Assembly: GCA_037974665.1 (NCBI GenBank)
Contig: CM075773.1
Location: 32,808,853 to 32,872,852 of the forward strand
Direction of reading: 5' to 3'
Source of the DNA: Ehretia macrophylla
Lineage: Eukaryota > Streptophyta > Magnoliopsida > Boraginales > Ehretiaceae
DNA: 64,000 nucleotides
Numbering within the stretch: the stretch's first letter is position 1; every line of letters starts with the position of its first letter. Positions 27,541 to 61,700 of the stretch are shown one piece after another. The notes below the pieces were generated by a model. That model ran no database searches, was not told the origin of the DNA, and was given only the letters and a program-made list of their open reading frames with translations. Made by a program: the position numbers and the translations under genes.

Positions 27541-27553
27541 ATTCCTCCCCCCA
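27541..27553 (-). other. Polypurine tract of Tat copy 1
   Basis: Read on the - strand, TTGGGGGGAGGAAT lies directly against the inner end of the 3' LTR, the expected place and composition for the plus-strand primer. Confidence 0.85.
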
Positions 27554-27735
27554 AGTCGAGATCGAGAGGGTGAGATCTAGAATTTGGCGGTTCCTCCCGA
27601 GTTGTAGGTGTCCGACCCTGAGAGAGTAGGGATGGCCATGTCAACGGTGCATGCCCAACGGATGGCTGACACGTCACCTGGCAGTTCTGACGAGACGTGA
27701 CGTTTGGGCTTCCCGAGGTGACTTTCAGGGGCGCC

Positions 27736-27743
27736 TATAAATA
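27736..27743 (+). promoter_or_regulatory. TATA box of the antisense gene, Tat copy 1
   Basis: TATAAATA in CGCCTATAAATAGGGC lies about 230 bases upstream of the antisense gene's first ATG and is followed by a CT-rich leader. The same place in copy 2 reads TATACATA (53020-53027). It faces away from the LTR, opposite to gag-pol transcription. Confidence 0.7.
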
Positions 27744-27964
27744 GGGCTTTAGCATCCGAGATTCATTTCACACTTTGCTTTCAATTTCTCAAGAAATTTA
27801 GGTCGGACACCAGAGTGGTCGGACGCAATTAGCTCGGAAAGAATCTTCTCGGGATTTGTCAGCTCGGAGCCAGCTTGGTCGGTCGCCCCCGCAGTCAAGA
27901 GCAGTAGGTACGTCCCGATTCCCTTTAGTCATTTCTGTTCATTTATATTTAGTCTGTAGACAGG

Positions 27965-30298
27965 ATGGGGAGGTCAGAGTCGGAAGACTCTCAGGCTATG
28001 GAAGTAAGGTCCTACGGTGGAGACGAGAGACCGTCGAGCTCGGAGTCTACCTCGAATAGGACCATGGTGGAGAGAGGACCAGTTCGTCTTCAGGGTCGGC
28101 TCGGAAATCTATGCCCCGGGAAAGCGATGATGACTGCCAGGTTATAGGGGTCACAATGGCGCAAGAAGAGGCCGAGGCAGATCCTTTGGCCGACTTGGGA
28201 GACTTGGGGGATGGAGAGGACGGCAAGCCATTGAACAAGTTGGAGGGGGTCGAGATACCACATGAGTACTTAGCTGGAGTTTCTGCGTCGGAGCCGACTG
28301 CAGTGATCCCAATTAGGGCAGTCCGACCTCGGAGCTCAGCTACAGCCAGTGGTTCATCAGGTTGGGGGAAGATGATAGAGCAGTTATTCGCTTGTTGCCA
28401 GCGCGAGTGTCATTCAACCATCGAGATGGCCAACGCTTGGCTGAGAGACTGGTCGGTGGACCGGCACCACAAACTGAAGGTCCCCGGTCGGAATGACCCT
28501 GCCTGTTATCCTCCACCCGATCACTTTATGATTTACGACCTCGCCTTCGATGTCGTCTGCCTTCCACTTCCCAGCTTCATTACAAGCATTCTGAACTACT
28601 TTGAGCTCAGCCCGGGTCAGATGTCACCAAACGGTTGGGCCATAATGGTGGCATTCTTTGTGTTCTGCCTCGAAAGGAAGATAGAGCCGACCTTGCGCCG
28701 TTTCAGGCATTTTTTCGTTTGCAAGCCCAACCCGAAGCAGCTAGGCTGGTTCCACTTTGCGGCTCGGGTCAACAATGCTATATTCACCAAGTGGCACTCC
28801 TCTAAGAAGGGCTGGCACAACGACTACTATTGGGTCAAGTCGACAGTGAACCCGGGGTGCAGGATGGACTAGAATCTTTCACTGAAAAAGACTTTAAATG
28901 ACGACCCCAAGCTTTCCAAAGAGGAACTCGCCGACGTCAACGTGCTGAGGCCCGAGCCGGGTATGCTGATCGACATCGATAGTGTCCTTAGGTGGGACAG
29001 GATATGGAAGTCCAAGCTATTCGGGAGAGAACCCGACCTGAGCGAAGAGCACCCACACTTGCTTCCAGAGCCTGAAGAGAACGCTCATTCCGACTCAGAA
29101 GAGGGTCAGTTCACAGGATCAATGCCCGACCTCCCCGTCTCCTAGTTTGTCGTTGCTCTTCTCGATTGGTAATTGGTCATTTTTCACCTTCTTTTCCTTT
29201 GTTTTTGCAGGCATGGCATATACAGTGAAGCTCGCGTACCTCCAGAGAAGGAGAAAGCCCGACGCCAGTGGCGAGGCGCCGGCTTGGTCCGGTTTTGGCT
29301 CCGTCCCTCAGGAGCAGAAGCAGCAGCCCGGGGGCCATTCGAGGGAGGTTGGCGCAGAGGTCTCGTCGGGATCTCCTTTGACAAAGAAGATGAGCTCGGG
29401 TGTGGTGATCCCCGAGCGCTCGGCATCCCGTTCTGACAACAGGAAGCGGCCCCGGCCCGAGTACTCCTGTAAGGGCAAGGCCGCGGAGGTGAGCCCTCCA
29501 AATAAGGATTTTGTGGAGGCTGCAAAGGTTGCCCGTGATCCCAAGTTGGGGTCGGTGCCAGCGGAGCAGCTTTCACTTGACCTGAGGACGGCCATAGTTA
29601 TGGTAAGACCTACCCAGACATGCTGTCATGGTTTCTTTTGTTGATTACTTTGACTAACCACTTTGCTTTCTTCCGCGCAGGCTGAGTCCCACATCCTTTC
29701 CACGCCTGGCCTGCTTGCCCGGGCCCAGACTTACTGTGTGGAGCTCGAGCAGCCCTACACAGATTCCCGAGCCGAGCTGGAGTCCTTTAGGACGGATGCG
29801 GCCCAGAGGCATAAAGCGGATGAGGCGGAGATCGCCCGGCTAAGGAAGAAGCTCGAGGCTGAAAAGTCCCGGCGCGAGGCCGTGGCCAAGGACCTTGAGC
29901 GCTACAAGCGGGAGAAGCGCGAGGCCGAAGCGAAGCATAAGGACCTCTTGGATCAGGTCGGCCCGCGAGGGGAGAAGGCAGTGGAGGCCTTTAAGTCCAG
30001 CCAAGAGGCCGTGGACTGGCTAGCCACTGAGGGTGGGGTGATGGCCCGGTACACCGAGTTGGAGTACTATTTTCGAGGCCAGGTTACAGCTCGTGAGAGG
30101 GCGAAGACCTTTTTCCCTACCGCCAAGATCGATTATATCGAGATCTTGGAGGCCCCACCCCCGAAATTTTGGGAGATTCTCGAGCTACCAGCTGACCTGA
30201 CGTCCCAGGCCAAAGAGGTGCTGGTGTTCGTTGAGAAGGGTATGGACCAGATCGGCGACGTTGCCGAGGCCACCACCTCCACCGCTGCTTCCAAATAA
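27965..30298 (+). mobile_element. Antisense extra gene of Tat copy 1
   Basis: This open region runs opposite to gag-pol, between pol and the 3' LTR. A probable leader intron (27908-27963, AG|GTACGT ... ACAG) precedes the ATG. Further introns end at about 29210 and span 29603-29680 (GTAAGACC ... CGCGCAG). The first part carries the 'putative gypsy type transposon' domain (PF04195; CYPPPDHFMIYDLAFDV..., LSPGQMSPNGWAIMVAFFVF). The last exon is a charged coiled coil (RLRKKLEAEKSRREAVAKDL). Extra genes of this kind are known in Tat relatives such as maize Grande and Silene Retand. Role unknown. It is part of a fossil element and is interrupted. Confidence 0.85.
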
Positions 30299-30949
30299 TA
30301 ATAATTTCTTTTGTAAAGTCGCCCGAGTCGGGCTTTTATAATTCTGCCCAGGCTGGGCTTGTGTAATTGATTTCAGTATTAATGAAATATCTATTTTACT
30401 TTTGTTTGGGTTTTGGTCGAGTTTGTACGTGTGTACCTTTCTCTTCGCAAATTTTCTTAAGTAACTGGGGTCGGACTGATTTAAGGGACCATACAAACTT
30501 AAGCGTAATGAACCGAGCTGGACGCGACTAGTGAATTAACACTCTAATCCGAGCTGGTTAATGGGGCAACTGTTTAATCGTCGCCGACTTGGACTCGTCA
30601 GTCTAATTTAAAACTGGTCAAACTAATGTTGACAAATGTTGAGCTCGAGTTCGGACCCCAAACTAACATACCGACCTGAAGCCGGATTAAACCGAGTTGG
30701 AACTTAACTCGAACTGGCAAAACTTAATCAAATTATAATCGATTATACCCTAACTGGAACTTTGTTCGAGCCGGTTTTATTGATCATTAACTCATAATCA
30801 AACGTGGCCATCGCATTAATCCGAGTTGGTAATAGCTGTATAGCTGAGCCAATTTGGGCCCGGGTCGGGCATTGCACTGGTTTTGGTGCTTATTCCCAGG
30901 TCGGGAATTGTACTGGTATGTAAAGATGCACTGTAATGAGTCTGTACAA

Positions 30950-31070
30950 ACAATGTCTTGGCCCGGGGCCTTTACAAGATTTCTCAGCTCGGGGCCGTAA
31001 TAAAATATTCCGGCTCGGGGCTGTTTACAAAGTATTTCGGCTCGGGGCCGCTAGACAAAATACCGCTTCA
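30950..31070. repeat. Short G/C-rich tandem motifs in the Tat spacer
   Basis: The motif CTCGGGGCCG or a close variant recurs about four times at ~30-35 bp spacing between the converging 3' ends of the antisense gene and pol. A similar cluster lies at about 56250-56350 in copy 2. It may mark the transcription-end region; that is inference. Confidence 0.6.
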
Positions 31071-34000
31071 GGTGTTCCGAGTGCCATGCGTTCTTCAATA
31101 GTTTCCCGTTCTTGTCACGAAGGTAGAAGGTCCCGGGTCGGACTTCTTTCACGACTTCATAGGGTCCCTCCCAGGTCGGGGATAGTTTGTTACCGGAGCG
31201 CGGCAAAAAGATTGCCTTTCTGAGTACAAGGTCCCTAACCTTAATAGGCTTAGGCTTAACTTGTTTGGCAAAGGCCTTTTGCATGGCAGCTTTGCTGGCC
31301 AGCATTCTAATTTGAGCTTTAGCTCGAAGCTCTTCAGCGAGGTCGAGCTCTCCACGGATCCGTGCTCCGTTTGTTTCTGGATTATGGTGGAGGGTTCTAC
31401 TGGTCGGAGACCCGATTTCCACCGGCAGCACCGCTTGAGTGCCGAAGGTCAGTTCGAAGGGCGATTCTCTCGTTGCCGAGCTGGTGTTGGTCCGCTGAGC
31501 CCACAACACCTCGGGAAGAATTGATGCCTATTGGCCCTCCGCTTCCTCCAGCTTGGTTTTCAGGCCCTGCAAAATGATTTGGTTAGTCCTTTCAACTTGG
31601 CCATTACTTTGAGGGTGAGCAATAGATGCGAGTCTCAGGTCGATCCCAATCTCAGCACATTTGCCTCGAAAGTATGCGCTGTCGAATTGTTTGCCGTGGT
31701 CAGTGATGATAACCTTTGGCACCCCAAATCGGCAAATGATGTTTTTCCATACAAAATCCCAAGCTGCCTTTTCTGTTATTCTAGCAACACCTTCAGCCTC
31801 GGGCCATTTGGTGAAGTAGTCTACAGCTACGAAGGCGTGCTTCTTTTGGCCGACACTGGTCGGCAATGGGCCAATGATGTCTATACCCCACTGAAAGAAT
31901 GACCAAGGGCCTACCATCACTGTGAGGTCCAGAGCAGGCTTTCTCTGTACATTGGCGAACCTCTGACAGGTGTCGCACTTTTTTACATACTCTTTGGCAT
32001 CCTGCTCTAAGGTTGGCCAGAAATAGCCTTGCCTTAATGCCTTCCGAGCCAGAGCTTTGCCTCCCAAGTGGTTTCCACATACCCCTTCATGGATCTCCCG
32101 GAGTATATAGTTTCCCTCTTCGGGTCCAACACATTTCAAGAGAGGCCAAGTGTAGGCTCTCTTGTAGAGTTGCCCGGCAATTATGACAAACCTTGAGGCT
32201 TGTTTCATGAGCTTTCGGGCTGCTTTTTCATCTTCTGGGGTCATACCCTCCTCCAAGTAGTCCACGATTGGTTTGGTCCAATCTGGGCTTAGATTGAGCT
32301 CGGCTACGGCTTGCACCCCCAACTGAATACTGGATTCAGATACTTCTTCAACATGGACCAGGGCAGGTCGGCTCTCGCCCAAGGCCAATCTGGACAGGGC
32401 ATCAGCCTTTATATTCTCTTCCCTGGGAATCTGCTGTATCGTGAACCTTCTGAGCCCCGAGGTCAAATCCTTGACTCTGTTGAGGTAGGCCAGCATAGCA
32501 CTGTCCTTGGCTTCAAACTCTCCCGATATCTGATTTGAAACCAGTTGAGAGTCGGTGCTCAGGTCGACTGTTTGTGCCCCGAGCTGCGCTGCAATTTTCA
32601 GTCCTGCAATCACTGCTTCGTATTCTGCTTTGTTATTGGAAGCCGGAAAGGTGAACTTCAGGGAGTATTGGTGCTCATGCCTGGTTGGGTCGAGGATGAC
32701 CACCCCAGCTCCGCTTCCGGACTTCCCTGAGGCCCCATCCACATGGACCTTCCATACGTCCCCCGGGTCATGCTCTACTCGGCCAGTGCATTCTACCACA
32801 AAGTCCGCGATGGCTTGGGCTTTGATGGCTGTCCTGGGCTGGTAGGTGATGTCAAATTGACTCAGCTCAACTGCCCATTTCAGTAGCCTGCCCGACGCCT
32901 CCGGCTTGTACATGATGGACTTGAGAGGGGCATCCGTCATGACCTTAACTGGATGAGCATCAAAGTATGGTTTCAACTTTCTTGCCGCTGTGATGAGCAT
33001 GAGGGCGAGTTTCTCCACGGATGAGTATCTCGCCTAGGCCCCTTGCAAGGTTTTGCTGACATAATAGACCGGCTTCTGCTCCTTTCCTTTTTCTCGGACT
33101 AGTGTCGCCGCTATTGCTATTTCTGAGCATGCTAAATATAGTACCAGCTCCTCCTCCACCTCAGGTCGGGACAACAGGGGTGGCGAAGCTAGGTATCTTT
33201 TCAGCTCTTGGAAGGCGTTCTGGCAATCCTCAGTCCATTCAAAGTTCTTAGGATTCCTCAATATCTTGAACAAAGGAGCACACTTGTCAGCCGACCTGAA
33301 CCTAAATCTGCTCAGCGCTGCGACCTTTCCTGCTAACACCTGGACGTCCTTTACGCAGGTCGGCAGTGCTAGGTCGAGTATTGCCTGGACCTTCTCGGGG
33401 TTGGCTTCTATTCCGCGGGCTGTGACCATGAAGCCCAGGAATTTGCCTGCCTTGACGCCGAATGCGCACTTTTTCGGGTTCAGCTTTATCCCAAAGTGCT
33501 CCATTACGGCGAAGGCTTCAGCCAAGTCGTCTACATGGTCTTCCGCCCTTCTGTTCTTGACCAACATGTCATCTACATAGATTTCCATATTCCGGCCAAT
33601 CTGATTTTTGAAGACCTTGTTCACCATCCGAGTGTAGGTAGCTCCAGCATTCTTGAGGCCAAAAGGCATGACCTCATAGTAGTAGAGCCCTTTATCAGTA
33701 GTGAAGACGGTCTTCTCTTTGTCTCCGAGAGCCATCTTGATTTGATTATAGCCTTTGAAGGCATCCATAAAAAAGAGTAGCTCGAATCTGGAGGTGGCGT
33801 CCACCATCTGATCGATCTGTGGTAAGGAAAAACAGTCCTTAGGGCAGGCTTTGTTGAGGTCGGTGAAGTCAATACACAGCCTTCAACCACTCGAGGACTT
33901 AGTCACCAGCATCACATTGGACAACCAGGTTGGGTACTGTATTTCCTTTATGTGGCCAGCATCCACTAACTTATCCATCTCTTCGGCTATGATTTGTTGT

Positions 34001-36323
34001 TTATTATAACGGAAGTGCTTGCGTTTTTGCTTTACCAGATAGTGATTTGGGTCGGCATTCAGGTGATGATCAATTACATCCGGGTCAATTCCTGTCATGT
34101 AAGAGGCAGACCAGGAAAATATATGTTCATTCTTTAAGAGGAATTGGCTTATACTTTTCTTGAGGTTGACAGAGAGTTTACTCCTTATCTTTGCCCTCTT
34201 GGTTTCATCAGAGAGCTCCACCTCCTGAAGGTCTTCAGCCAGGCTTCCTCTCTTAGCATCCCTCTTTTTTTCGGGCAGATCTGGTCCCCAGCCGATTTGA
34301 TACTTGGGCCGGAGTGAGTTTTCATAACATTCCCGAGCTGAGAGCTGGGCTCCGCGAATTGTGGCTACTCCGGCCGGGGTTAGGAATTTCATGGCCTGGT
34401 GATAAGTTGAGGGGACGGCCCTGAAGTGATTGAGTGCCACCCGACCTAAGATCCCATTGTAAGTGGAGTTGCAATCCATTACTATGAAGTTGGTTTGCAT
34501 CGATACCCATTTATCTCCATCCTCCAGCTTCAGCGGTAGGTTGATGACTCCTTCGGCTCGGTGGGACTGCCCGGTGAAACTAGCTAAAGTACCCCTCAAT
34601 GGCCTGAGTAGGCTCCTGTCCAACCCCATTTGCTCAAAAGCGCTGAGGAATAAGACTTCTGCCGAGCTCCCGGTGTCCACCATCAACCTCTTGACGGTGA
34701 AGTTAGCTATTTCAGCGCTGATTACCAATGGGTCGTCATGAGGCAATATCACCCCCTCCAGGTCTTCTGAGGAGAAGGTGAGCTCCTGCATCCCCGGGGC
34801 CGGTCCCCGCATCGGTCCATACTCCCTCCCAGCGCGAACATAACCCTTCCTGCCTGCTGAGGTCTCTCCTCCTAACGCCAACCCTCCCGCAATGGTCTCA
34901 ATCACGGCCAAGCGTCTGCCCCCAGCCTGGTGCCTCGGCGGACTCCTCTCCCTATCCCTTTGGTTGGGATTTCGGGTCGGCTGCGGATCTACATATCTCC
35001 GGCGGTGGCCTCGGGCTATCAATGCCCCAATCTCCTGTTTCAAGTCTTTACACTCTTCGGTGGTATGGCCGTAATTCATGTGGTAGCGGTAATACTTGGT
35101 TCTATTACGCTTCTCCGGTCGGCCCTTCATCCTTGGAGTTGGAGGCAGGTGGTTATGGTGTTGGATCTCCATCAGGATCTGCTCCCTAGAGGTGTTAAGA
35201 GGAGTGAACATGGTGAACCGGGGGTTCTGCTTTGGCTGTTGAGGCTGCTTGCCTCTGTCATTTTGGACTTTACCGCCAGGTTGGGCTCGAGAGGCCTCTC
35301 CCTTCTCCTTGTCATCATCCCTTTTCGCCTGATGGATTTCCTCCGAGTGTATGTACCCTTCTGCTCGTACCATCAGCTCGGATACAGTGTCCATGGGGTT
35401 GATTGCCAGGGAGGACGTGAGCGGGCCCGACCTCAACCCACTCTGGTAAGCTATCAACGTCATGGAGTCCTCCAGGTTGGGAATTCGGAGGGACTCTTCA
35501 TTGAATCTGGCCGTGTAGGCCCTCAAGCTTTCCCCTCTATGTTGCTTCACCAGCAGTATTGTAGAAGTATGGCGGGTAGCGCGTCGGCTTCCAGCGAAGC
35601 GAGACAGGAAAGCCTCAGCCAGCTGGTGAAAACTTGCAATCGAACCGGGACGAAGTTTCTGGAACCAGTCCAAGGTATTGCCAACCAGGGTGGTCGGGAA
35701 TGTCTTTGCCTTCATGAGATCTGGCATGTCATGCAGAGTCATGTGGTGATCAAAATTAAGCCGGTGGCTAGCTGGGTCTCCATCTCCATTATAGACGGCC
35801 AGGTTGGGCATGCTGTTGTCAGTGGGCAGTGGCGTGGCCAGTACCTCGGGGGAGAGTGGGCTTACGCCGAGCTGGTTGATGACCTTGGCTATGGCAGCTG
35901 CGGTCTTGGCCTGCTCGGGATCGGCTTGAACCGCGCTTTTACCTCTCGCCGCGTCGGATCTCGCCACCGGCTCTAGGAAACCCTCTTCGTCCTGCGTCCG
36001 TTTCGCCTTGACTCTAGGATGTGGAATTGCGGAGGTGATGGCCGCGGCGTAGCCTCTTACGGGGCTAGGGGGCCCTCAGCTAGCTGGGCTACCTGTTCCT
36101 TAAGTTCCTCGAACATCTTCAGCATCATCCTTATCTCCGGTGATAGGCTGGAGTTGGGGTCTCCTTCTGCTGTGGGGTTGGTTTGAGTGGCTAAGTGTAT
36201 ACGTTGGCTCGTTCTAACGTCGGCGTGGGTTAGGTTTTGGCTAGGCACCTGCGTAGTTTCGAAGTCCCCTTCCGGGTTGGCCGAATCCTCTACCGGTGTG
36301 TTGTGGCTTCTAGTTTGCACCAT
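31051..36323 (-). mobile_element. gag-pol region of Tat copy 1
   Basis: On the - strand: gag starts at 36323 (MVQTRSHNTP...), with the retrotransposon gag core at about 35810-35430 (NTLDWFQKLRPGSIASFHQL) and a CCHC-like knuckle near 35050-35110. The protease has a DTGSSAEV active-site motif near 34675. The reverse transcriptase has YVDDM at about 33565-33579. RNase H lies at about 33250-32830 and a second archaeal-type RNase H at about 32750-32370 (VHVDGASGKSGSGAG). Integrase has an HHCC zinc finger at about 32095-31970 and its core and C-terminal part down to 31051. The region is interrupted about four times. Confidence 0.93.
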
Positions 36324-36371
36324 AATGGTTTCTCAATGAGTGGTGAAGAGAGTTATAAAAGAACTCGTCGT

Positions 36372-36389
36372 TTCCCACAGACGGCGCCA
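36372..36389 (-). other. Primer-binding site of Tat copy 1
   Basis: Read on the - strand, TGGCGCCGTCTGTGGG begins three bases inside the 5' LTR. The first nine bases match the complement of the 3' end of plant tRNA-Asp (TGGCGCCGT...). Confidence 0.8.
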
Positions 36390-36392
36390 AAC

Positions 36393-36857
36393 TGTTGAGG
36401 TCGAAAACCTCATAGTTGAAGTTGAGAGCTACTTGTGCCGAGCTGGACTTTTCAGGTCGGCCTCCGAGCTGTTCTTTCCGGGTCGGCTACCAGACTTGTA
36501 CAAGGAAAATAAGGAAAATGCGGGGTGATGACCTGGATTTTCCCCTCGAGCGTGCGAATGATTAGTATGTCCGAGCTGGCAAGGTAGCTGAGAGCATTTA
36601 ATAACGAGTTACCTCCTTAAATGAAGAGGGTGGAGCTCTATTTATACTAAGTTCTGGTATGACAGCATTTAATGCAGCGCAGATTTATGTCCTATCAGCG
36701 CTTTATGTCCCATCGGAATAGCTGGAACTGAGGTCGGGGTATCTGGGGTCGGGCCAGTCATCCTGGTTGGACACTCAGCTCAACGCGCTGGCCTTGGCGC
36801 TGATTAGCCCGCTTGGCTTGGGACGGATTCGTACCTCAGCTCGGGAACCCTTCATCA
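36393..36857 (-). repeat. 5' LTR of Tat copy 1
   Basis: 465 bp, with ends TGTTGAGG and CTTCATCA on the + strand. A TATA motif read on the - strand lies at about 36638-36646 and is the likely promoter for gag-pol. An 18 bp segment around TATGTCCTATCAGCGCTT is absent from the 3' LTR but present in related form in both LTRs of copy 2, so copy 1's 3' LTR lost it. Confidence 0.95.
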
Positions 36858-36943: not shown

Positions 36944-37346
36944 TTCAAATTGGAACATAAAGGTACAGAAGATTAATGTCGCGATAGTATATAGACCTTG
37001 TTTGAAACACCTGCCACATATAATATCGAGGTGAAGTCTAATGATATTAATTTTGGTGATACATGTCTTTAATGCTTTATTGATGTGGATTAAAATTCAG
37101 TTGATTCCACTTGTATAACCATATAAAAGTCAATATAAGTTACAATAGAAATCATATTATACATATATGATACTACAATTTAGAGGAAAAAATTATTTAT
37201 CTTTGGCAAAGAGCAAAGAGACAAGCTATGATGTCTTTCATAATATAGGAATTAAAATAAGATATGATTGATTATTCATCTCCATTCGTATCTCTTTTTC
37301 CAATCTCACTATTGATTAGTTCACAAGATTGAATGACAAATTTTCT
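36944..37346. repeat. Dispersed duplicate block, copy A
   Basis: About 400 bp starting TTCAAATTGGAACATAAAGG are shared with 46443-46903 in the same orientation, at high identity apart from a few indels. It lies next to the right LTR of Tat copy 1 and downstream of the XTH exon fragment. No coding content recognised. Confidence 0.88.
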
Positions 37347-37899: not shown

Positions 37900-38407
37900 T
37901 AAAGTAATCTAAGTTTTTATATATCTATTTTCTGTTTTGCTAGAAAAATTTGAGGGATGCTTATATAACATGATTAATAAATTGTCATAATATACAACTT
38001 ATAAATAGGGTTTTAAGTCGTTTAATGGTGTTCATACTTCTGGTGTAACATATTATTCAATGTGAAATTTCAACGTTCATTAATTTTGTTAATGTTTGTA
38101 ACAATTTTCTTTTTTCTCCCCCTCTCTCTCTCTCTCCCTCCATGAATTTCATTCCTTTTTTTCTCTTTACTACTTACGAAATTGAACCCTCCCTTTCAAT
38201 TTTTGGAAGATGGTGGGAAAGGAAACACGTTAAAAAGAAAAAAAAAAAGAGAGGTTTTTGCTTTTATTTAGACTAAAAAGTGTATTATCTATGATTTTGA
38301 TGTTGGTGTACTAGGAGGAGAAAAAGGTTTAACTGTATAATGCTTGCGATCTGGTATTTTTTTTTAATTATTATTATTATTTTTTGGTAAGTCTAGTTTT
38401 AAAGGTT
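37900..38407. other. Spacer left of the CACTA element
   Basis: The first ~150 bases would be the XTH fragment's promoter (- strand). A CT microsatellite (CTCTCTCTCTCTC, about 38120) and A/T-rich low-complexity sequence follow. No gene seen. Confidence 0.6.
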
Positions 38408-38429
38408 CACTACAAAAAAATGAATTCTG

Positions 38430-38850
38430 TGACGGTCAATTTCCCCTCACCGTGCTGTCGCCAATTTTGACTTTGCGACGGCACGGTGAGGGGAAACGTC
38501 TGTCAGAAATAAGGTGGTCGCCAAAATCTTCCCAGTCACGGCGACGGCTCGTCACCAGGCCGTCACCAATGATTGCCGTCACCGAGCTCTCGCCAATGTT
38601 TTCCCTCACTAAGCCCTCGCCAATTTATCCCGTCACCATGCCGTCACAAAAATTTTCCGTCACCATGCTGTCACTAATGTTTCCCTCATCATGCAGTCAC
38701 TAATATAACCCGTCACTATATCGTCACAAATAATTCCTGTCACCATGCCTTCACTAATATTTTCCGTCACCATGCCCTCGCCAACTTTACCCGTCCTCAT
38801 GCCGTCACCAAAACTGCCATCGCCAAGCCCTCACCAAAACTGCATGCAAC
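38430..38850. repeat. Left subterminal repeats of the CACTA element
   Basis: About twenty copies of a ~10-20 bp motif based on CCGTCACCATGC(C/T)GTCAC(T/A)AA in direct and inverted orientation. In the En/Spm family such arrays are binding sites for the element-encoded TNPA protein. The right array (about 43920-44140) has fewer and more diverged copies. Confidence 0.85.
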
Positions 38851-39295
38851 AGTTTATCTTCTATCTTTTCCCAAAACCCCCTCATCTCTCTACATGTGTA
38901 TGTTGTTAATTATTATCCCTACTTTGTCTCACATGTCACAATTCTTTATAATAGATTTAAATCTGTTACAAAAATGGGTATAATGCAAAAATAGATCATC
39001 TTTGAATGATATATGTACAACTAACCCGTTTATATACATACTAGTTGAGCTTGCCCGTGCAAACCCAATGAACATTAAAAAAAAAATTATAAATGAAATT
39101 ATTTTATAAAGATATATACAATGTTGATTCCAAACTTTTTGATTCCATAACATGAATATGACCAAAAGAAAAAGTAAATTGCCAACATAATATTGTGAAT
39201 TTATTGGATTACAGTTACAGTTCATTTTTGCAAAGTAGTGATTCTCCACGAACAGAGTCTGCCAACACATTTCCATATCCTGAGATCTATCTCTG

Positions 39296-39560
39296 CTATA
39301 AACTTCTCTCCCCAAACTATCAGCTAGACGCTAATTCTTGGGATTGCAATATTGTCGACTACAATATAACCCAGTTTATTAAGCTTTCCATTCTCCTCTT
39401 TAAAAAGTGATTCATTTTCAGTAAGCATTATGCTACCATAGTTATACCAACATATTACTAATCTTCATATCTGTGACTACTATAAACTTCTCTTTCTTCT
39501 AACTGTGAGACGAATGTTAATTCTAGGGATTGCAAACCTATCGACTAAAATTCAACCAAG
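39296..39560. repeat. Diverged direct repeat inside the Helitron
   Basis: The segment TATAAACTTCTCT...GGGATTGCAA...TCGACTA occurs at about 39297-39375 and again at 39481-39560, 185 bp apart. Non-coding. Confidence 0.7.
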
Positions 39561-39735
39561 CCTCTATTTAAATAAAATAAAATAAAAACCTTGATTGACA
39601 TGCAAGGTTCCAAATATGAGACTCCATTAAATTTTCATTCTTACGTGTAAAGTATTTTTTTTTCCTGAAAAATTGTAACAGGAAGAAAAGACCCCAAGCA
39701 AACTTCACAAATTTACAATGTATAAAGAGCCCTAC

Positions 39736-39865
39736 TGTAAAATCCCAACGATGTCTCTCAGCAAATTCTTTTGCAGCTTCTTCATTGTCAAAACTCAATG
39801 TTGAATCACCAACATTAGCATATGGGTCGCCTGTGGATGTCCAACCCATTAATGGATTTTTCCAT
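39736..39865 (-). pseudogene. Captured NDUFS4 (complex I 18 kDa subunit) exon
   Basis: A 130 bp exon with its own splice sites (TTGTAG acceptor before 39865, GTAGGG donor after 39736) encodes [20 protein letters not shown] and then [15 protein letters not shown]. This is the core of the NDUFS4 family (Arabidopsis FRO1, At5g67590), an accessory subunit of mitochondrial complex I. The following exon (relatives have TPLLKVKSYADNFKWKG) and the N-terminal exons are absent, so it cannot make the protein. The retained splice signals mean it could be spliced into a chimeric transcript. Confidence 0.88.
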
Positions 39866-40488
39866 CTACAATAATGATAATAATTTTAATAACATGATTG
39901 TAAAAATAAAGTACATTGGAACTCATAATTAAAAAATGAGTCAAGGAAATGCTAGTAGAACAAAAACCTATCAACATCTAATAATTGATATAGAGAAACA
40001 TTGTAAAAATGAACTGAGATAGGAAAGGAAATGACCGAGGCTGCATTATGGCTAAGTAGAAGTGAAACGAAGAAACTTTCCCTCATTTAAGGTCCAGGCT
40101 GTGAAAAATTTGCACCGTTGTCCACCAAACCATTTTCAACTTGATAACATTAAAATTTTACAAATTAAAATGACCTCCTTGCTAACAAATCAGTCTTCTT
40201 TTATGAAAGTCTTCAATTGCAAAATGTTAAACATGAATACGTTTTCATATATACCAAAATCTAGATCTCATGGTGCCGGTAACTTCTAATGTACTAAGAA
40301 GGCAAAGATATTCATAAGGACAATGACCAACATATTCTAGGACCAGCAGAAAAATGAGGTATTATTCAACTTCCAAATTATACCCAAAACATAAAGATAA
40401 AAATCCAAAATGAGCAAGATTTACGTTGTATCTAAAAAACACTCACGACTCCAATTTTAATACTCATTATACCTTGTGATAAAAGCAT

Positions 40489-40692
40489 AGCAACTGGGTT
40501 AATCAAAAACATTGGTTACCTACTCCCTTTCTTTATTCCAGAACCCTTATCTTTGGAATTTCCATCTGCCATCCGTGAATGAATAGAGATAGCAACTGGG
40601 TTAATCAAAAACATTGGTTACCTACTCCCCTTCTTTATTCCAGAACCCTCATCTTTGGAATTTCCATCTGCCATCCGTGAATGAATAGAGAA
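40489..40692. repeat. 102 bp tandem duplication inside the Helitron
   Basis: 40489-40590 and 40591-40692 are nearly identical (two or three differences), so the duplication is recent. On the - strand each copy holds an ATG followed by DGNSKDKGSGIKKGSR-like coding sequence and a GTAACC donor-like site. It may be a duplicated captured exon of a gene I do not recognise. Confidence 0.9.
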
Positions 40693-41284
40693 CGTCCATA
40701 TTTTTATTAATGCATCCATGTAAAAACAAAAAATCATTCATTTATCCACAGAGTAAAAACAATATTAAATATCAATTATAGTTCAAAAGAAACTTAAGGT
40801 ATAAAATGAACAATGGTTAAAACAAACATTCAACTGACCTTCAGAATCAGGTTTGAAATAATTGTATGTTGAAAGTATAACTAAATAAAATTAAACAATG
40901 AAATATAATAGGATAAGATAAAGACGTGCATGATCAATATATTTAAAGCCATAAGGACTTTCTCCATCCAAAATTATTAACCAAAATCACCATTTAGAGA
41001 GTGAAGACAATACAAGAGTATAGATTACGAGGCATACCCTTCCTCAAGAGAATACACATGCTATGACATCTTTGCCACAGCTAACCGAACAAGATCACTT
41101 GAATAATGACGATCTTCATGAAAGTCACCCATGGTATCACTGAACCACTTCTTCTAATTAGGGTGCTTATTGTTGTTGTTGTAGGCATCCTCCCAAATTA
41201 ACAAATTAACATCCGTCAATAAAATTAAACATTCACGGAATCAGATTTGGTTAGAGGGCATACAAAAAAAGACCACAACAATCT

Positions 41285-42321
41285 TGTGATATAGCAGGAT
41301 TGTCTAGATAATGATGTGCTTTAAAGAGCTCTAGCACTGAGGATTTCTAATAGTCCAAACAAACCTACAGATAGAAAATAGTTATGAGAATAGCACCAAC
41401 AACTTATGTACTAAATGTTCCATGAACAGCTTTGGTTTTGACACTAACTTAAAAACCTTAGTGTCATCCACATATGAGATGTTAATGAGGTATTCAAGAC
41501 CTATTAACAAACCACTTATGTTCAAATTTGTTATATTCTAGTACCCGGATACCAGCCTGCAGAGAAATCATTCAATTAACAAAATCTTTCAACCTAATAT
41601 CACATACAGTTCACAGATGATACTATATAATGCCTAAAATTCAAACGCATAATTGGCTGAAGCGTTTTAGGTCTTAAGAATACAATTTATTTACATGATT
41701 CTAGATGCTAAACTGCTCTGACCAATTGCTCCCTCATGTCATATCTATAAGCCAACTTTTGTTATGATAACAAAATCACATTTGATTCTAGGAGCGTGTC
41801 AAAAAATTGATCTAGAATTCAGGAATAATTTTCATAAAGAACCGGAGCACACAGTTTCAGACATCAGGTAAAATTGATGGGACAAAATCTAACATCCTAC
41901 CACATAGATTATATAAAGATAGACTAATTCTTCAGGTTTTTGAAATTCAGCACTCTAAGAAGTGGAGGTTTTTCTTGCAGAAAGCATAAAAAAAGATCAA
42001 ATAATGGCATGAATCCCCTAGACAACTCTAGAACTAAGATTGAATGACTTGGGAAGAAATGGTTGCCAGCACACACCACTTGAGGAACTCCACACTTCCT
42101 ATCCTTACCCTCTTTCCAAGCAGAGAGACAAACAGGTAGCATCTTTTACTCACTACTTTTTTGTTATGAAATATGTTATTAGTTAGATAAGAATATCTTC
42201 CAATTAGAAGGGAGAAAGGCATATTTTGTATGGAAATGATTCATTGTGCTAATAATATGAGCAGAAAGATACTCACCTTGTAGAATGATGTAAAGAACAA
42301 CGCCAAATTCTGAATAAATGC
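41285..42321 (-). pseudogene. Captured segment of exportin-1 (XPO1/CRM1), three exons with introns
   Basis: On the - strand, in gene order: exon 42277-42321 (AFIQNLALFFTSFYK; TTCAG acceptor, GTGAGT donor); a second at about 41448-41556 that begins near IRVLE and ends GLEYLINISYVDDTKVFK; and a third at about 41285-41364 containing VCLDY and VLELFKAHHYLDNPA. XPO1 is the nuclear export receptor for leucine-rich export signals, a ~1,075-residue HEAT-repeat protein; these pieces are about 70 residues of it. Damage: the middle of exon 2 has drifted and changed frame, its donor is no longer GT, and the Trp of LDYWN is TAG. Introns are kept, so the copy came from genomic DNA, not mRNA. Confidence 0.85.
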
Positions 42322-42647
42322 CTGAACAAAATAAAGAAATAGACTAAGACTAAGATTATATAAATAATTGGCACCTTAAACTCTATATTGGTTTGTTCAA
42401 AACTTGCTTGAAATAAGTTGGTAATTGGGCTTCGCCAATTGAGTTTCTAAGTAGGTTCAACATGACTGAAGTTCTTTAATTTATCAGATTTAATACAAAT
42501 TGGAGTCCCTAAATATGACAGACGATATCCGCTGAACACATGAACAAAAATAAAACACATCATTCAGAAGCATGTATACAAACAAAATATACAGAAGAAT
42601 ACCAAACATTCATATACTATTGAAAATATTGGTTAATTATCCTATTA

Positions 42648-42943
42648 TCATGTTTTGCGACTATCATTATTGGGCAAAGTGAGTTATCTAGTCAAGAACA
42701 TCTTGTTAACAGTATTAGAAATCAAATCACTTCACAAGCTCAAACTATCCAATTCCTCATCAGCAACCACAAAAACCAATAAAAATTGACAAACCTCATC
42801 AGCAACCTCAAAAACCAATGAAAATTCATATGTTACCATGTTTTGCTATTTATCATTACTATGCAAATTCAGCTATCAAACAAAGATCATCTTGTTCACA
42901 AAATATTAGAAATCAAAGCACTTTCATAAGCTCAAACTATCCA
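42648..42943. repeat. Diverged tandem repeat inside the Helitron, ~189 bp period
   Basis: CATGTTTTGC...ATCATTATT...ATCTTGTT...ATTAGAAATCAAA...AAGCTCAAACTATCCAA occurs at 42648-42752 and 42836-42943. A shorter CCTCATCAGCAACC(A/T)C unit is repeated between them. Probably intronic sequence of a captured gene. Confidence 0.75.
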
Positions 42944-44168
42944 AGGCATCATCTAAACTATTTTGTACACTCATAACGACTATAAAAAATAGAAAAAAAA
43001 GCATCTAAACACAAGGATAGCAATACAATATGTAAAAACTTTAAATAAGTAATTAAGTCAAGTAAATCAATCTTGAAATGCATCGATCTGAAAGAAATTA
43101 AAAAAAATTAAAAAAAAAAGAAGAGACAGATCGATGTCCATTTAATTTGAGATGGACAAAAGGTAGAAAGTAGAGAACCTAGCCTTACAGGTACTGCCGA
43201 CAAGAAACAAAGAAACAAAATTTTAAAATTTTAAAAAAATTTAAAAAAATAAAAAAAGAATAAAAAGATCTAGATAGAAACAAAGAGAAAGAGAACTCAC
43301 CAGTGAGAGGAAAAGAAACAAAGAGATATAGAGAGCACTAAGAGAGAAATATTTTTGGAGAAGCTTGTATGAAGAGAGTGAAAGAAACAAATAGAATTGT
43401 TGAGAAGCTTTGAGAAAATCTGTGATGTGAAGAGAGAACGTTGAGAGATTTGAGAAATAAACGAGACGTCAGATTCCGCTAAAGATCTTTTTTGGGCATA
43501 CAAAAGATTGTACAAAACTGTTAACACATAGTACAATCATGTTTATGCATTGATTAGTTACAAATATTTTCAATTGGACAATTTTGTCCAAGGATGTCAT
43601 GGTCATACAATATGAAAAGTACAACAATGGTAACACATGGTATAATTCTCTTAATGCATCTACAACCTACAAATATCCATAACTTGACCACTCTGTCCCT
43701 TTATATTCTTTTATGCTATAATAGATATATATATATATAAGGTATGGTCCTAAATTACAATTTTAGGATAAATTGTTAATAAAAATTTAATGATTAATTA
43801 TTTATATTAACTTAAATTTTAGATTAAAATAAATTAATTATTAAATAAAAAAAATATTATTTTCAAAAATTATAAAAAAAATTGAAAATAAAAAAAAAAT
43901 CCTAAAATAAATTTTACAAAATTGGAGACGGGAGGCTTTTCCTTCTCCAATTTTGGATACGGGAGGCGTTCCCGTCGTCAATTTTGGAGACGGCGAAGTA
44001 TGCCGTCACTAACAGTGACGGCTTGGTGACGGTTTTTTCTGTCTCACATTATGCCCTCACTCTCCTATCACAAAATTAGTGTCAACATTACCCTTCACCA
44101 AACTGTCGCCGTATTGGTGACGGGATGACGACGGCCCGTCACAAAATTCAGTTTTTTTTATAGTGGTT

Positions 44169-44994: not shown

Positions 44995-45716
44995 TTATAC
45001 TTCAGCTCTGCAAATAGGGCAAGAAGTCTTTGTTGACAACCATCTGTTTATACAATCTACATGGTATTCATGGCCGCACTGCAGAGTCGCAATAGTCTCA
45101 TTGTTCTCGTATTCTTCTTGGCACACAACACACGTATCGCAGCCTTCATCTTTATCCGCATTCCCTTCATACGTCCGTGTCATCAAATTCTGGAAGACAT
45201 CCATAGACGACGACTCAATATTCACATCATCAACAAGATCAGCTATATCTTCAATTAAGCCGTTCACATAATTTACGAATTCTCCATGGTCGGCAAACGG
45301 CAATAACGTTTCTTCCTCCAGTTGTTGTTCTAGTTGGTCAAGAAGAGGCATTGTTTGATCAGCAATACTCACGTCGAGTTCTGGCTGCAGACTCTGATAA
45401 TTATAATAATCATGATAGCCATGCGAGGCATATAGTGCTGGATTATGCATACTCTGATGATATGGCTGGTGGCATGAACCGCCATCATTGGTGAGCCATA
45501 AGGGGATAGTAAAGAAGCGCCATTGACATTGTTGGCCGCAGAAAATTGCGTTTCTTGATGGAACCTTGGAGCAGTGGTGACATTGACATTGTTGGCCGCA
45601 GAAAATTGCGTTTCTTGATCATAGAAGCTTGGAGCAGTGGTGTAATGGCTGCCAAAGGAGGCATGGTGCTGACGCTGAGCGTCATTAGCTATAGTGTGTC
45701 TGACGCTATTGGCCAT
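44995..45716 (-). pseudogene. RING-H2 E3 ubiquitin ligase gene with an apparent frameshift
   Basis: The start at 45716 (MANSVRHTIANDAQRQHH) opens a frame carrying GASLLSPYGSPMM. The C-terminal part reads in a different frame, from about 45485 (NDGGSCHQPYHQSMHNPALY) to the stop at 44995. The C-terminus is a C3H2C3 RING finger: CVVCQEEYENNETIATLQCG, then HEYHVDCINRW and CPIC, at the extreme end as in BIG BROTHER/MBR-like ligases. It would bind an E2 and transfer ubiquitin. The two frames meet near 45485-45500 without splice signals, so a small indel or a sequencing error is likely. A 60-63 bp tandem duplication (45520-45642) repeats TAPxFxxETQFSAANNVN. If the indel is an error the gene is about 240 residues and intact. 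Confidence 0.7.
45520..45642. repeat. In-frame 60/63 bp tandem duplication in the RING gene
   Basis: Two copies of CATTGACATTGTTGGCCGCA...GGAGCAGTGGTG lie head to tail (45520-45579 and 45580-45642), differing mainly by 3 bp. It duplicates a stretch of about 20 residues in the N-terminal region and is in frame. Confidence 0.9.
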
Positions 45717-46442: not shown

Positions 46443-46903
46443 TTCAAATTGGAACATAAAGGTACGGAAGATTAATCCCACGATAGTATGTAGATCTTGT
46501 TTGAAACACTTGCCACATATAATATCGAGGTGAAGTACTCTTATGATATTAATTTTGGTGATACATGTCTTTAATGCTTTATTGATGTGGATTAAAATTC
46601 AGTTGCTTCCACTTGTATAACCATATAAAAGTCAATATAAGTTACAATAGAAATCATACATATATGATACTACAATTTAGAGGAAAAAATAAAAAAAAAA
46701 TAAAAAACAGTTCACTATATGAAACTTATACTATGTACAAAATCAAGGAAGCCTCAAAATTATTCATCTCTGGCAAAGAGCTATGATGTCTTTCAGAAAT
46801 ATAGGAATTAAAATAAGATATGATTGATTATTCCTCTCCATTTATATCTCTTTTTCCAATCTCACTCTTGATTAGTTCACAAGATTGAATGGCTAATTTT
46901 TCT
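46443..46903. repeat. Dispersed duplicate block, copy B
   Basis: Same orientation as and collinear with 36944-37346, with a ~60 bp insertion around 46690-46750. The two copies flank the XTH fragment, the CACTA element and the RING gene, so a ~9.5 kb step separates them. No coding content recognised. Confidence 0.88.
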
Positions 46904-52358: not shown

Positions 52359-52824
52359 TGTCGATGTTGGAAATCTCACAATTGAGGTTGGGAGCTACTC
52401 GCGCCTAGCTGAACTTTTTAGGTTGGCCTCTGAGCTGTACTTTCCTGGTTGGCTACCAGACCTGCACAAGGACAAGAAGGAAAAGGTGGGGTGATGACCC
52501 GGATTTTCACCTCGGGCGTGCGAATGATTAGTATATCCGAGCTGGCGAAGTAGCTGAGAGCATTTAATGAGCAGTTACCTCTCAAATGAAGGGGGTGTAG
52601 CTCTATTTATACTAAATTCAGGTCTGACAGCATTTAATGCGGTGCAACTTTATGTCCCATCAACGCTTTATGTCCCATCGGAACAACTGGCACTGAGGTC
52701 GGGGTTTTCCGGGGTCGGATCAGTATCCAGGTTGGATATTTAGCTGAATGCGCTGGGCTCGGCTCAAATTAGCCCGTCTCAGCTCGGCGTGGGTAACTCA
52801 CCCCAGCTCGATAACCCCTCGTCA
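52359..52824 (-). repeat. 3' LTR of Tat copy 2
   Basis: 466 bp, TGTCGATG ... CCTCGTCA on the + strand. The polypurine tract (GGAGGGGGGGGAT read on the - strand, 52825-52837) abuts its inner end. Confidence 0.95.
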
Positions 52825-53019
52825 ATCCCCCCCCTCCAAGTTGAGATCGAGGGGGTGAGATCTAGAATTAGGTGTTTTTCTCGAGCTCGAGGTGCCCGAC
52901 CCTGATAGAGTAGAGATGGCCACGTCAGCGGTGCATGCCCTTCAGATGGCTGACACGTCACTTGGCGGTTCTGACAAGACGCGACGTTTGGGCTTCCCGA
53001 GGTGATTTTCAGAAGCGTC

Positions 53020-53027
53020 TATACATA
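53020..53027 (+). promoter_or_regulatory. TATA-like box of the antisense gene, Tat copy 2
   Basis: TATACATA in GCGTCTATACATAGGGC, at the place matching TATAAATA in copy 1 and ~230 bases before the antisense ATG at 53248. Confidence 0.6.
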
Positions 53028-53247
53028 GGGCTTTGACATCCGAGATTCATTTCACATTTCACTTTCAACCTTCAAGAGCTTTAGGTCGGATACCAGAGCG
53101 GTCGGATGCATTTAGCTCGGAAAGAACCTTCTCGGGATTTTCAGCTCGGAGCCAGCTTGGTCGGTTGCATTCCGCGGTCAAGAGCAGTAGGTATGTCCCG
53201 TCTCCCTTTAGTCATTCCTGTACATTTATATTTAGTCTGTAGACAGG

Positions 53248-55603
53248 ATGGGGATGTGGGAGTCAGAAGATTCCCAGGCTATGGAAGTAAGGTCCTATGG
53301 TGGAGATGAGAGTCCGTCGAGCTCAGAATCTACCTCAAATAGGGACCATGGTGGAGAGAGCACCACTTCGTCTTCAAGGTCGGCTCGGAAATCTGGGCCC
53401 GGAGAGAGCGATGATGATTGCCAGGTTATTGGGGTCATATTGGCACATGAGGAGACCGAGGCGGATCCTTTGGCCGACCTGGGTGACTTGGGAGATAGGG
53501 AGGATGACGAGCCATTGAACCAGTTGGAGGGGGTCGAGATACCACATGAGTACTTAGCCGGAGTTTCCGCATCGGAGCCGACTGAAGCAGTCCCGGTTAG
53601 GGCGGTCTGACCTCGGAGCTCAGCTATAGCTAGTGGTTCGTCGGTTCGGGGGAAGAGGATAGAGCAGTTATTCGCTTGTTGTAAGCGCGAGTGTCATTCT
53701 ACCATCGAGATGGCTAACGCTCGATTGAGAGACTGGTCGGTGGACCGACACCACAAGTTGAAGGTCCCAGGTCGGAATGAATCTGCCTGCTATCCTCCGC
53801 CCGATCACTTCACTATTTATGACCTCGCCTTCGATGTCATCCGGCTTCCACTTTCCAGCTTCATTACCGGCATTTTGAATTACTTTGAGCTTAGCCCGGG
53901 TCAGATGTCACCAAACGGTTGGGCCATAATGGTGGCATTCTACGTGTTCTGCCTTGAGATGAGGATAGAGCCGACCTTGCGCCGGTTCAGGCATTTTTTT
54001 GTTTGTAAGCCCAACCCGAAGTAGCCAGGGTGGTCCGCCTTCGCAGCTCAGGTCAACAACGCCATATTCACCAAGTGGCACTCCTCCAACAATGGCTGGC
54101 ACAACGACTACTATTGGGTCGAGTCGGCCGTGAACCCAGGGTGCAGGGTGGATTGGAATCTTTCCTTAAAAAAGACTTTGAATGACGACCCCAAGCTTTC
54201 AGAAGAGGAACTTGCCGAGGTCAGGGTGCTGAGGCCCGAGCCGGGTATGCTGATTGATATCGACAGTGTCCTAAGGTGGGACAGGATCTGGAAATCCAAG
54301 TTATTCGGGAGAGAACCCGACCTAAGCAAGGAGCACCCCCACCTACTTCCCGAGCTCGAAGAGAATGCTCATTCCGGCTCAGAAGAGGGTCAGTTCGTAG
54401 GATCAATGCCCGACCTCCCCATCTCCTTGTTTGCCGTTGCTCTTCTCGATTGGTACTTGGCCATTTTTTCACCTATCTTTTCCTTTGTTCTTGCAAGCAT
54501 GGCAGAAATGGTAAAGCTTGCGTACGTCCAGAGAAGGAGAAAGCCCGACGCTAGCGGCGAAGTCTCTGCTCGGTCCGGCTTGGGCTCCGTCCCTCAGGAG
54601 CAGAGGCAGTGGTCCGGGGGCCATGTACGAGAGGTTGGTGTCGAGGTCTCGTTGGGGTCTCCTTTGCCCAAAAGAGCGGGCTCGGGTGTAGCAATCCCTG
54701 AGCGCTCAACAGCCCGTCCTGACAATAGGAAGCGGTCCCGGCCCGAGTACTCCGGGAAGGGCAAGGCCACGGAGGTGAGCCCCCCCAATAGGGATTTTGT
54801 GGAGGCTGCTAAGGTCGCCCGTGATCCCAAGTTGGCGTCGGTCCAGGTGGAGCAGCTTTCACTCGACCTGAGGACGGCTATAGCCACGGTAAGGCATATG
54901 TGGACGTGCTGACATAGTCTCTTTTGTTGATTGTTTTGCCAGGTTTTTTTAGCTTTGACTGACCACTTTGCCACCTTCCGTGCAGGCCGAGTCCCACATC
55001 TTTATAGCACCTGGCCTATTTGCCTAGGCCCAGACTCACTATGTCGAGCTCGAGCAGCGATACACAGACTCCCGAGCCGAGCTGGAGGCCATTAGGGAGG
55101 ATGCGGCCCAGAGGCAAAAAGCGGATACGACGGAGATCGCCAGACTAAAGAAGGAGCTCGAGGCTGAGAAGTCCCAGCGCGAGGCCGCGGCTGCGGATGT
55201 CGAGCGCTTCAAGAAGGATAAACGCGTGGCCGAGGCGAAGCTTAAGGACTTCTTGGATCAGGTCGGCCCACGAGGGGAGAAGGCAGTGGAAGCCTTTAAG
55301 TCCAGCCAAGAGGCTGTGGACTGGCTAGCCACAGAGGGTGGGGCGATGGCCCGGTACGCTGAGTTGGAATACTACTTCAGAGACTAAGTCGCAGCTCAGG
55401 AGAGAGCGAAGACCTTCCTCCCTGCCACCAAGAACGATTACTTCGAGATCTTGGAGGCTCCGCCCCAGGAATTCTGGGAGATTCCTGAGCTACCGGCCGA
55501 CCTGACGTCCTAGACCAAGGAGGTAATGGAATTTGTCCAGAAGGGTATGGACCAGGTCGGCGACGTAGCCGAGGCCACTATCTCCACCGCTGCTCCTAAG
55601 TAA
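53248..55603 (+). mobile_element. Antisense extra gene of Tat copy 2
   Basis: Collinear with the antisense gene of copy 1: acidic Ser-rich start, the PF04195-type domain (CYPPPDHFTIYDLAFDV), an intron at about 54889-54985 (GTAAGGCA ... CGTGCAG) and a terminal coiled coil. A leader intron like that of copy 1 is implied by GTAGGTATGTCC upstream of the ATG. It is interrupted several times. Confidence 0.8.
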
Positions 55604-61631: not shown

Positions 61632-61679
61632 AGTGGCTTCTCAATGAGCGGTGAAGAGAGTGATAAAAGAACTCGTCGT

Positions 61680-61697
61680 TTTCCACAGACGGCGCCA
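61680..61697 (-). other. Primer-binding site of Tat copy 2
   Basis: TGGCGCCGTCTGTGG read on the - strand, three bases inside the 5' LTR, as in copy 1. It matches the 3' end of tRNA-Asp over the first nine bases. Confidence 0.8.
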
Positions 61698-61700
61698 AAC

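What the first reader, a model, noticed from the sequence alone, without database searches (positions are those of the whole stretch)
39041..43725. Probable gene-capturing Helitron nested inside a CACTA transposon
The 5.76 kb CACTA element (perfect ends, GTT duplication) contains a 4.69 kb insert with a TC start, CTAG end and A|T target, the Helitron signature. Removing it leaves a ~1.07 kb CACTA with subterminal repeats on both sides. The insert carries exons from at least two unrelated host genes in one orientation, so it is an exon-shuffling vehicle inside another transposon.
Basis: partly seen in the sequence, partly recalled or inferred. Interest (0 to 1): 0.85.

Follow-up and report, generated by a model that had tools for sequence, protein, structure and literature searches.

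The report
CACTA transposon carrying patchwork Helitron cargo
A jumping gene of one class (CACTA) in a plant genome carries, and is copied together with, the ends of a second class (Helitron), and sister copies across the genome hold five different Helitron subfamilies at exactly the same base, which is hard to explain by ordinary random insertion.

Summary
The CACTA is 38408-44165 with a GTT duplication; the insert has Helitron ends on the minus strand (TC at 43725, CTAG at 39041, A|T flanks). Unrelated loci share each Helitron end without CACTA, and an uninterrupted version of the left-hand site exists. The interpretation needs correcting. (1) The 4.69 kb insert is not one Helitron but a mosaic: a 3' module of one Helitron family, a fragment matching another locus, an interior piece of a second family and the 5' end of a third. 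A sister CACTA on C18 shares the arm and 3' module but continues as the free family does, so the patching came after the 3' end reached the CACTA. (2) The site lies in foreign sequence the CACTA already carried; the postulated 1.07 kb empty CACTA was not found. (3) The surprise: 48 of 56 intact arm tips run into CTAGT (42 exactly). In 30 loci read in letters these are 3' ends of five Helitron subfamilies, at one base and in one orientation, although tips differ by only about 4% between types. CACTA transposition spread the composites. How five Helitrons reached one base (recurrent precise insertion or end exchange) is open. In the window only one captured host exon (NDUFS4) is confirmed.

The parts
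38405..38407 (.). target-site duplication GTT, left copy (right copy 44166-44168)
   Evidence: sequence
38408..44165 (.). whole CACTA composite, 5758 bp
   Evidence: terminal CACTA.../...TAGTG plus GTT duplication; left arm found at many other loci with different flanks
38408..38837 (.). CACTA left end with subterminal repeats (27-bp period array 38550-38811)
   Evidence: homology of the non-CACTA locus L075 starts only at 38838
38838..39040 (.). foreign sequence carried by the CACTA before the Helitron; the docking site is its right edge (39040|39041)
   Evidence: continuous across the site in L068, L075, L076, L077
39041..40428 (-). Helitron 3' module (A family, type T1) ending CTAG at 39041; the terminal hairpin is altered by a deletion relative to free L007 but still folds
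   Evidence: 92-93% to free copies L007 and L010; predicted -5.4 against -6.4 kcal/mol for L007; seven A copies and L002 continue differently beyond 40428
39733..39867 (-). captured exon of NDUFS4 (complex I 18 kDa subunit)
   Evidence: Pfam NDUS4 E 5e-13; 11 of 14 genome matches of this family lie in A-family copies (one search read)
40429..41203 (-). B fragment, exon-like but unidentified; contains a 102-bp tandem duplication 40487-40691
   Evidence: 92-95% to L079 (C15:9205700-9207100); a second place on C7; duplication
41204..41215 (.). 12-bp junction filler between B and C
41216..42361 (-). interior piece of a C-family Helitron
   Evidence: 93-95% to L013, L015, L016, L018-L024; the copies shown continue differently on both sides
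42362..43725 (-). 5' part of a D-family Helitron, TC terminus at 43725
   Evidence: 95% to L004, L005, L006; D-family 3' ends seen at the other side of L005, L006, L008, L009, L012
43726..44165 (.). CACTA right arm
   Evidence: 86% to L036 and L037; 891 first-look candidates, 40 scored

Best explanation
A non-autonomous CACTA family first acquired a piece of foreign sequence at its left inside edge. Helitrons then became joined to one A|T in that piece, always with their 3' CTAG end facing the CACTA left arm. From then on CACTA transposition (3-bp duplications) moved the composite, including copies whose Helitron 3' hairpin is lost. The interiors behind the Helitron 3' module were later patched with pieces of other Helitrons and other loci, most simply by template switching during repair or replication of the element; [quoted passage not shown] Shown: anatomy, uninterrupted left site, mosaic junctions, precise CACTA ends with independent flanks, five Helitron 3' types at one base. 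Inferred: template switching, and that transposases are supplied from elsewhere. Unresolved: whether the five types came by recurrent insertion or by exchange at the Helitron terminus.
For: Sister arms plus Helitron 3' part at L002 and L003; modules A/B/C/D with sharp edges. L002 continues 169 bp past window 40428 as the free A family does, so the window's switch to B is later. 48 of 56 arm tips joined to CTAGT, 42 exactly and 6 with one or two changed letters; 31 of 31 exact-anchor tips have CTAGT at one offset out of 29 allowed, reversed control 1. 30 of 32 distinct tip loci read in letters carry T1-T5 ends (3, 7, 6, 4, 10). 22 independent left flanks among the 26 loci with a recognised CACTA start. 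Matching 3-bp duplications GTT (window) and ACA (L073). A hairpin-less T2 end sits at two independent CACTA sites, L048 and the L045/L052/L062 group. L049 (T1) and L070 (T3) have left arms 96% identical, grouped 100/100, with different Helitrons; T1 and T3 as single clades are rejected, p-AU 2.2e-5 and 4.0e-5.
Against: Right ends were seen in only three composites, and one of them (L074) lacks a clean matching duplication. Of 48 filled tips 30 were read in letters, 17 were typed only by match coordinates (C19:39762820 only as T5-like at 81-83%) and one (C13:52565798) is untyped. A Helitron 5' end was identified only in the window among CACTA-borne copies. T4 as one clade is not rejected (p-AU 0.36; T2 and T5 not tested), and all filled copies as one clade are not rejected (p-AU 0.154). 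Types are weakly but significantly clustered on the arms (permutation p 0.012 for the last 103 columns, below 0.005 further in). Microhomology at the window junctions is short or absent (about 3 bp at 40428, none at 42361, by eye), so template switching is not proved.
Confidence: 0.72

Rival explanations
1. One reading: one gene-capturing Helitron of 4.69 kb inserted as a unit into a 1.07 kb CACTA.
For: Both termini and A|T flanks fit; both ends have free families.
Against: The two ends belong to different families; sister CACTAs L002 and L003 already carry the 3' part, and L002 continues as family A; no empty 1.07 kb CACTA among 56 tips.
Confidence: 0.1
2. The five Helitron types arose by recurrent, independent insertion at one strongly preferred A|T of this CACTA family.
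For: Each type has its own 3' letters and exists free at other sites (T4 from one free copy); 9 of 22 free flanks end in a TA run by eye and the tip is TA-rich; the uninterrupted L068 falls inside a filled clade, 96/97 support (81/90 for the like fork).
Against: The other 13 of 22 free flanks are not TA runs; the native site has 13 A|T positions within 30 bp, the used one included, yet 31 of 31 tips use one offset, in one orientation; holding all filled copies together is not rejected (p-AU 0.154).
Confidence: 0.4
3. One ancestral Helitron docked once; later types replaced it by exchange at or near its CTAG end (stalled synthesis at the 3' hairpin and switch to another Helitron end, or gene conversion between CACTA copies).
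For: One base and one orientation for all types; near-identical arms with different types, differences denser near the tip in L049/L070 (by eye); interiors demonstrably patched; fork-stalling template switching is a published model for Pack-TIR elements in animals (PMC8277862, passages).
Against: Type-specific letters begin straight after CTAGT, so each switch would have to fall within about 5-10 bp.
Confidence: 0.4
4. A single ancient insertion with purely vertical divergence of the Helitron into five types.
For: Shared position; about 75 bp of related 3' end; filled copies as one clade not rejected.
Against: Arm tips differ by only 4.4% between types in the last 103 columns, while representatives of the types differ by about 10-26% over the 36-156 bp that align, and nothing beyond aligns in 1200 bp.
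Confidence: 0.04
5. Helitron signature by chance; the interior is native CACTA.
For: L002 and L003 match CACTA arm and interior without a break.
Against: Same termini beside many unrelated flanks, and uninterrupted sites.
Confidence: 0.01

Closest known systems
Pack-CACTA / gene-carrying CACTA elements (soybean and Arabidopsis elements as cited in PMC13317346, passages; Chenopodium PMC8978399, passages)
   Same: CACTA ends, captured host fragments; here also subterminal repeats and 3-bp duplication
   Different: Cargo consists of Helitron 3' ends at one fixed base, with five Helitron subfamilies across sister copies
Canonical Helitrons (TC...hairpin...CTAG, A|T target; description in PMC4778049, passages)
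   Same: Ends, 3' hairpin, A|T insertion, captured exon
   Different: The window copy joins ends of two families and was spread as CACTA cargo
Template-switch (FoSTeST / gap filling) Pack-TIR model, PMC8277862 (passages)
   Same: Patchwork interior between terminal arms with sharp junctions
   Different: Described in metazoans; the filler here is largely other transposons

Membership tests
CACTA (En/Spm) | CACTA...TAGTG termini | tested here: met
   38408 and 44165
CACTA (En/Spm) | 3-bp target-site duplication | tested here: met
   GTT in the window, ACA in L073; L074 reads ATA against ACA
CACTA (En/Spm) | subterminal repeats on both sides | tested here: met
   arrays 38550-38811 and 43922-43993
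CACTA (En/Spm) | own transposase (autonomous member) | not tested
   no transposase search was made; this copy is treated as non-autonomous
Helitron | 3' CTRR with hairpin | tested here: met
   CTAG; predicted hairpin -5.4 kcal/mol in the window, -12.6 (T3) and -15.2 (T4) in sister composites, absent in L049 and L045
Helitron | 5' TC and A|T target | tested here: met
   ' terminus to within 2 bp
Helitron | both ends from one element that moved as a unit | tested here: not met
   ends belong to families A and D; patching after docking
Helitron | Rep/Hel protein in an autonomous partner | not tested

The most novel reading that the evidence does not exclude
A CACTA family carries a fixed docking base at which Helitrons of different subfamilies are repeatedly exchanged or inserted, end-exactly and in one orientation, so that one transposon class serves as a reusable carrier and swap site for another.
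Probability: 0.5. Interest if true: 0.78.

Novelty: new variant of a known kind. Interest (0 to 1): 0.6.

Why it matters
Nested transposons are common. A family in which nearly every copy with an intact arm tip holds a Helitron end at one base, while the Helitron differs between near-identical carriers, is not. It offers a natural test of how Helitrons pick targets and end, and of how DNA transposons swap their interiors. It also suggests that exon shuffling begun by Helitrons can be continued by cut-and-paste transposition even where the Helitron's own terminal hairpin has been lost (as in the T2 copies L045 and L048).

Tried and rejected
Reading 39041-43725 as one Helitron: rejected. Tandem Helitron arrays at the docking site: no second 3' end at 38 bits or more was found in the window, L031-L034, L070 extended, L073 or L074. 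Clean Helitron 5' junctions at the module edges of T2 (L073, L051), T3 (L031, L070) and T4 (L047): none of these copies had a TC terminus there. L070 as a clean insertion: the foreign sequence does resume behind its cargo, but about 60 bp of it is missing and a histidinol dehydrogenase fragment lies between. The foreign piece 38838-39040 looked bHLH-like by eye in its neighbour (recalled motif; also in my note), but Pfam gave nothing, so the name is not used as a finding. Parent of fragment B: its C15 locus carries the same in-frame stop, so it is not shown to be an intact gene. Papers: searches (15 of 90 listed; 8; 12 of 21 listed; 1; 1; 1): no listed title or abstract start describes Helitrons at one fixed site of a CACTA family; beyond listings I saw passages of PMC4778049, PMC5148889, PMC13317346, PMC8277862 and PMC8978399.

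Rows dropped or special: L055 was left out of the trees (long branch); L060 was left out; L052, L055, L056, L057, L058, L060 and L062 were left out; six loci without a recognised CACTA start were left out. L060, labelled 'empty', is on re-reading a T2 copy with a deletion across the junction: its arm stops 6 bp before the tip and a T2 match from base 117 follows directly (C6:2742066-2742205); C16:37851178 looks the same.
Full report
The window lies in a 1.58 Gb genome of 20 contigs, G000:C10:32808853-32872852; gene content and transposon types are those of a flowering plant (inference, species not named).

Observation. The CACTA runs from 38408 to 44165 (5758 bp) with GTT on both sides. On the minus strand the insert starts A|TC at 43725 and ends CTAG|T at 39041. 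Three D-family copies with clear flanks read A|TCTCTATT, so the 5' terminus is certain only to 2 bp. Free copies with the same CTAG terminus and unrelated flanks were seen at L007, L010, L015, L020 and L025. In one search I fetched 18 flanks of free T3-like and T5-like copies and another 4; all 22 have an A before the 3' end, 18 keep CTAG and 4 have one changed letter in it; several come from local duplications. The Helitron boundary is therefore real.

Mosaic. The search scored 40 of 2188 candidates; its 66 matches break at fixed points. Going right from the CTAG end: module A (39041-40428; 92-93% to free L007 and L010), B (to 41203; L079, 92-95%), 12 bp of filler, C (41216-42361; 93-95%) and D (42362-43725; 95% to L004-L006). 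All seven free A copies inspected (L007, L010, L011, L026-L028, L030) continue beyond 40428 with GTCCATT..., and so does L002, a CACTA-borne copy, for 169 bp. So the ancestor shared by the window and L002 had CACTA arm plus A, and the window's B-C-D came later. The C and D copies shown continue differently at the edges that the window shares with them. Microhomology is about 3 bp at 40428 and none at 42361 (by eye). No other place among the matches joins both ends.

Uninterrupted site. L075, L076, L077 and L068 run without interruption through the point where the Helitron begins. L075 lacks CACTA sequence: its homology to the window begins at 38838. L076 was fetched only from 91 bp before the tip pattern, so its left side is unknown. 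L068 has a precise CACTA end; L077 is probably CACTA-borne (its match starts 18 bp inside the CACTA part) but its end was not fetched. Hence 38838-39040 is foreign sequence that the CACTA carried before the Helitron. One search lists 12 long matches of the sequence beyond the site, 6 of them beside a tip. None of the 56 tips was seen joined to the right arm, so the proposed 1.07 kb CACTA was not found.

The recurrent site. A 26-base tip pattern has 56 places with at most 2 mismatches and 0 in the reversed control. With CTAGT appended, 48 of the 56 remain, 42 with CTAGT exact and 6 with one or two changed letters (3 further places there are outside the 56). The 8 others are L077, L068 and six loci with one shared variant, of which L075 and L076 were read. 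A pattern allowing CTAGT at any of 29 offsets found it at one offset in 31 of 31 places, with 1 hit for the reversed control. Of 32 distinct tip loci read in letters, 30 are followed by a Helitron 3' end; L068 is uninterrupted, and L060 is a T2 copy with a deletion across the junction. The 30 fall into five types: T1 3 (window, L002/L044, L003/L049), T2 7, T3 6, T4 4, T5 10. By match coordinates 17 more of the 48 can be typed (T2 4, T3 1, T4 2, T5 10, one of these only T5-like), and one is untyped. Between representatives of the types only 36-156 bp near CTAG align, at 74-90% (T1 against T2: nothing); within types at least 125 bp align at 87-99%. Tips differ by 3.9% within and 4.4% between types over the last 103 columns (24 loci, permutation p 0.012): types are slightly clustered but the arms are close. 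All five types exist as free Helitrons with their own 3' letters: T1, T3 and T5, T2 and T4 (T4 from a single free copy, L101). So neither chance nor a single insertion with vertical divergence fits.

What moves it. Of 26 tip loci with a recognised CACTA start, 22 have independent left flanks (20 of types T1-T5, plus L060 and L068). L073, a T2 composite read end to end, has ACA on both sides; L074 reads ATA against ACA. A hairpin-less T2 end (predicted -0.4 kcal/mol) sits at two independent CACTA sites, L048 and the L045/L052/L062 group, and L049 has none (0.0). Window and L044 share one deletion in the hairpin at different places, but that end still folds (-5.4 against -6.4 for free L007), so it is weaker evidence. 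The 3' hairpin is the transposition terminator in Helraiser (PMC4778049, passages). CACTA transposition, not Helitron transposition, therefore spread these copies (inference from these facts).

History of types. In the arm tree L049 (T1) and L070 (T3) group with 100/100 support, and single clades for T1 and T3 are rejected (p-AU 2.2e-5 and 4.0e-5), while T4 is not (0.356); T2 and T5 were not tested. The types were defined by sequence, but I chose the three tests after seeing a tree. In L049 against L070 differences look denser near the tip, which suggests recombination inside the arm (by eye). L068 sits inside a clade with T1, T3 and T4 (96/97, 81/90), which favours more than one docking, but holding all filled copies together is not rejected (p-AU 0.154). 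I therefore leave recurrent precise insertion and exchange at the Helitron terminus about equal. Template switching as the patching process is borrowed from the animal Pack-TIR literature (PMC8277862, passages) and is not shown here.

Cargo. One host exon is sure in the window: NDUFS4 at 39733-39867 minus. Of 14 matches of this family in the genome, 11 lie in A-family copies and 3 elsewhere (C7, C16, C2), the latter being possible parents. B is exon-like but unidentified. The claim of two host genes is not proved for the window. Sister composites carry other pieces: histidinol dehydrogenase in L070/L078 (E 1.9e-10) and DUF4283 (E 2.2e-8) in L074.

Print. The searches listed no title or abstract start reporting Helitrons at one fixed base of a CACTA family; 15 of 90 and 12 of 21 papers were listed, and most subscription papers are not held. 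Nested transposons, Pack-CACTA elements and capturing Helitrons are well known, so I rate this a new variant of a known kind, with the fixed shared site as the surprising part.

Noticed in passing
window 27094-36811 and 52359-62118: Two copies of one LTR retrotransposon (gag-pol-like frames, long direct terminal repeats) about 25.3 kb apart lie on either side of the CACTA region.
   Followed up: no
window 37037-37156 and 46539-46658: A 120-bp direct repeat, 98% identical, lies on both sides of the CACTA, 9.5 kb apart.
   Followed up: no
window 40487-40691: A 102-bp tandem duplication (98%) covering an exon-like piece in fragment B; the relative L079 has one copy.
   Followed up: partly
L004, beside the D-family 5' end: The D-family Helitron 5' end is followed directly by an inverted copy of the same 5' end (head to head).
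   Followed up: no
G000 C5:44533490-44746976: Seven T5 CACTA/Helitron tips in about 210 kb; the four with flanks read share one flank, so a local segmental amplification.
   Followed up: partly
L036, L038, L040, L041 (L042 less exact): CACTA right arms preceded directly by what looks like another CACTA right terminus (...TTTTTGTAGT), i.e. doubled right ends.
   Followed up: no
Helitron types T1-T4: Shared 3' modules are of similar length, about 1.3-1.5 kb, before copies diverge (T1 1388, T2 1472, T3 1494, T4 1305; free T5 matches reach up to 1400).
   Followed up: partly
window 44995-45618 and 2281-5245: Frames that look like a RING-type zinc finger gene and a translation initiation factor IF-2 (by eye).
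   Followed up: no
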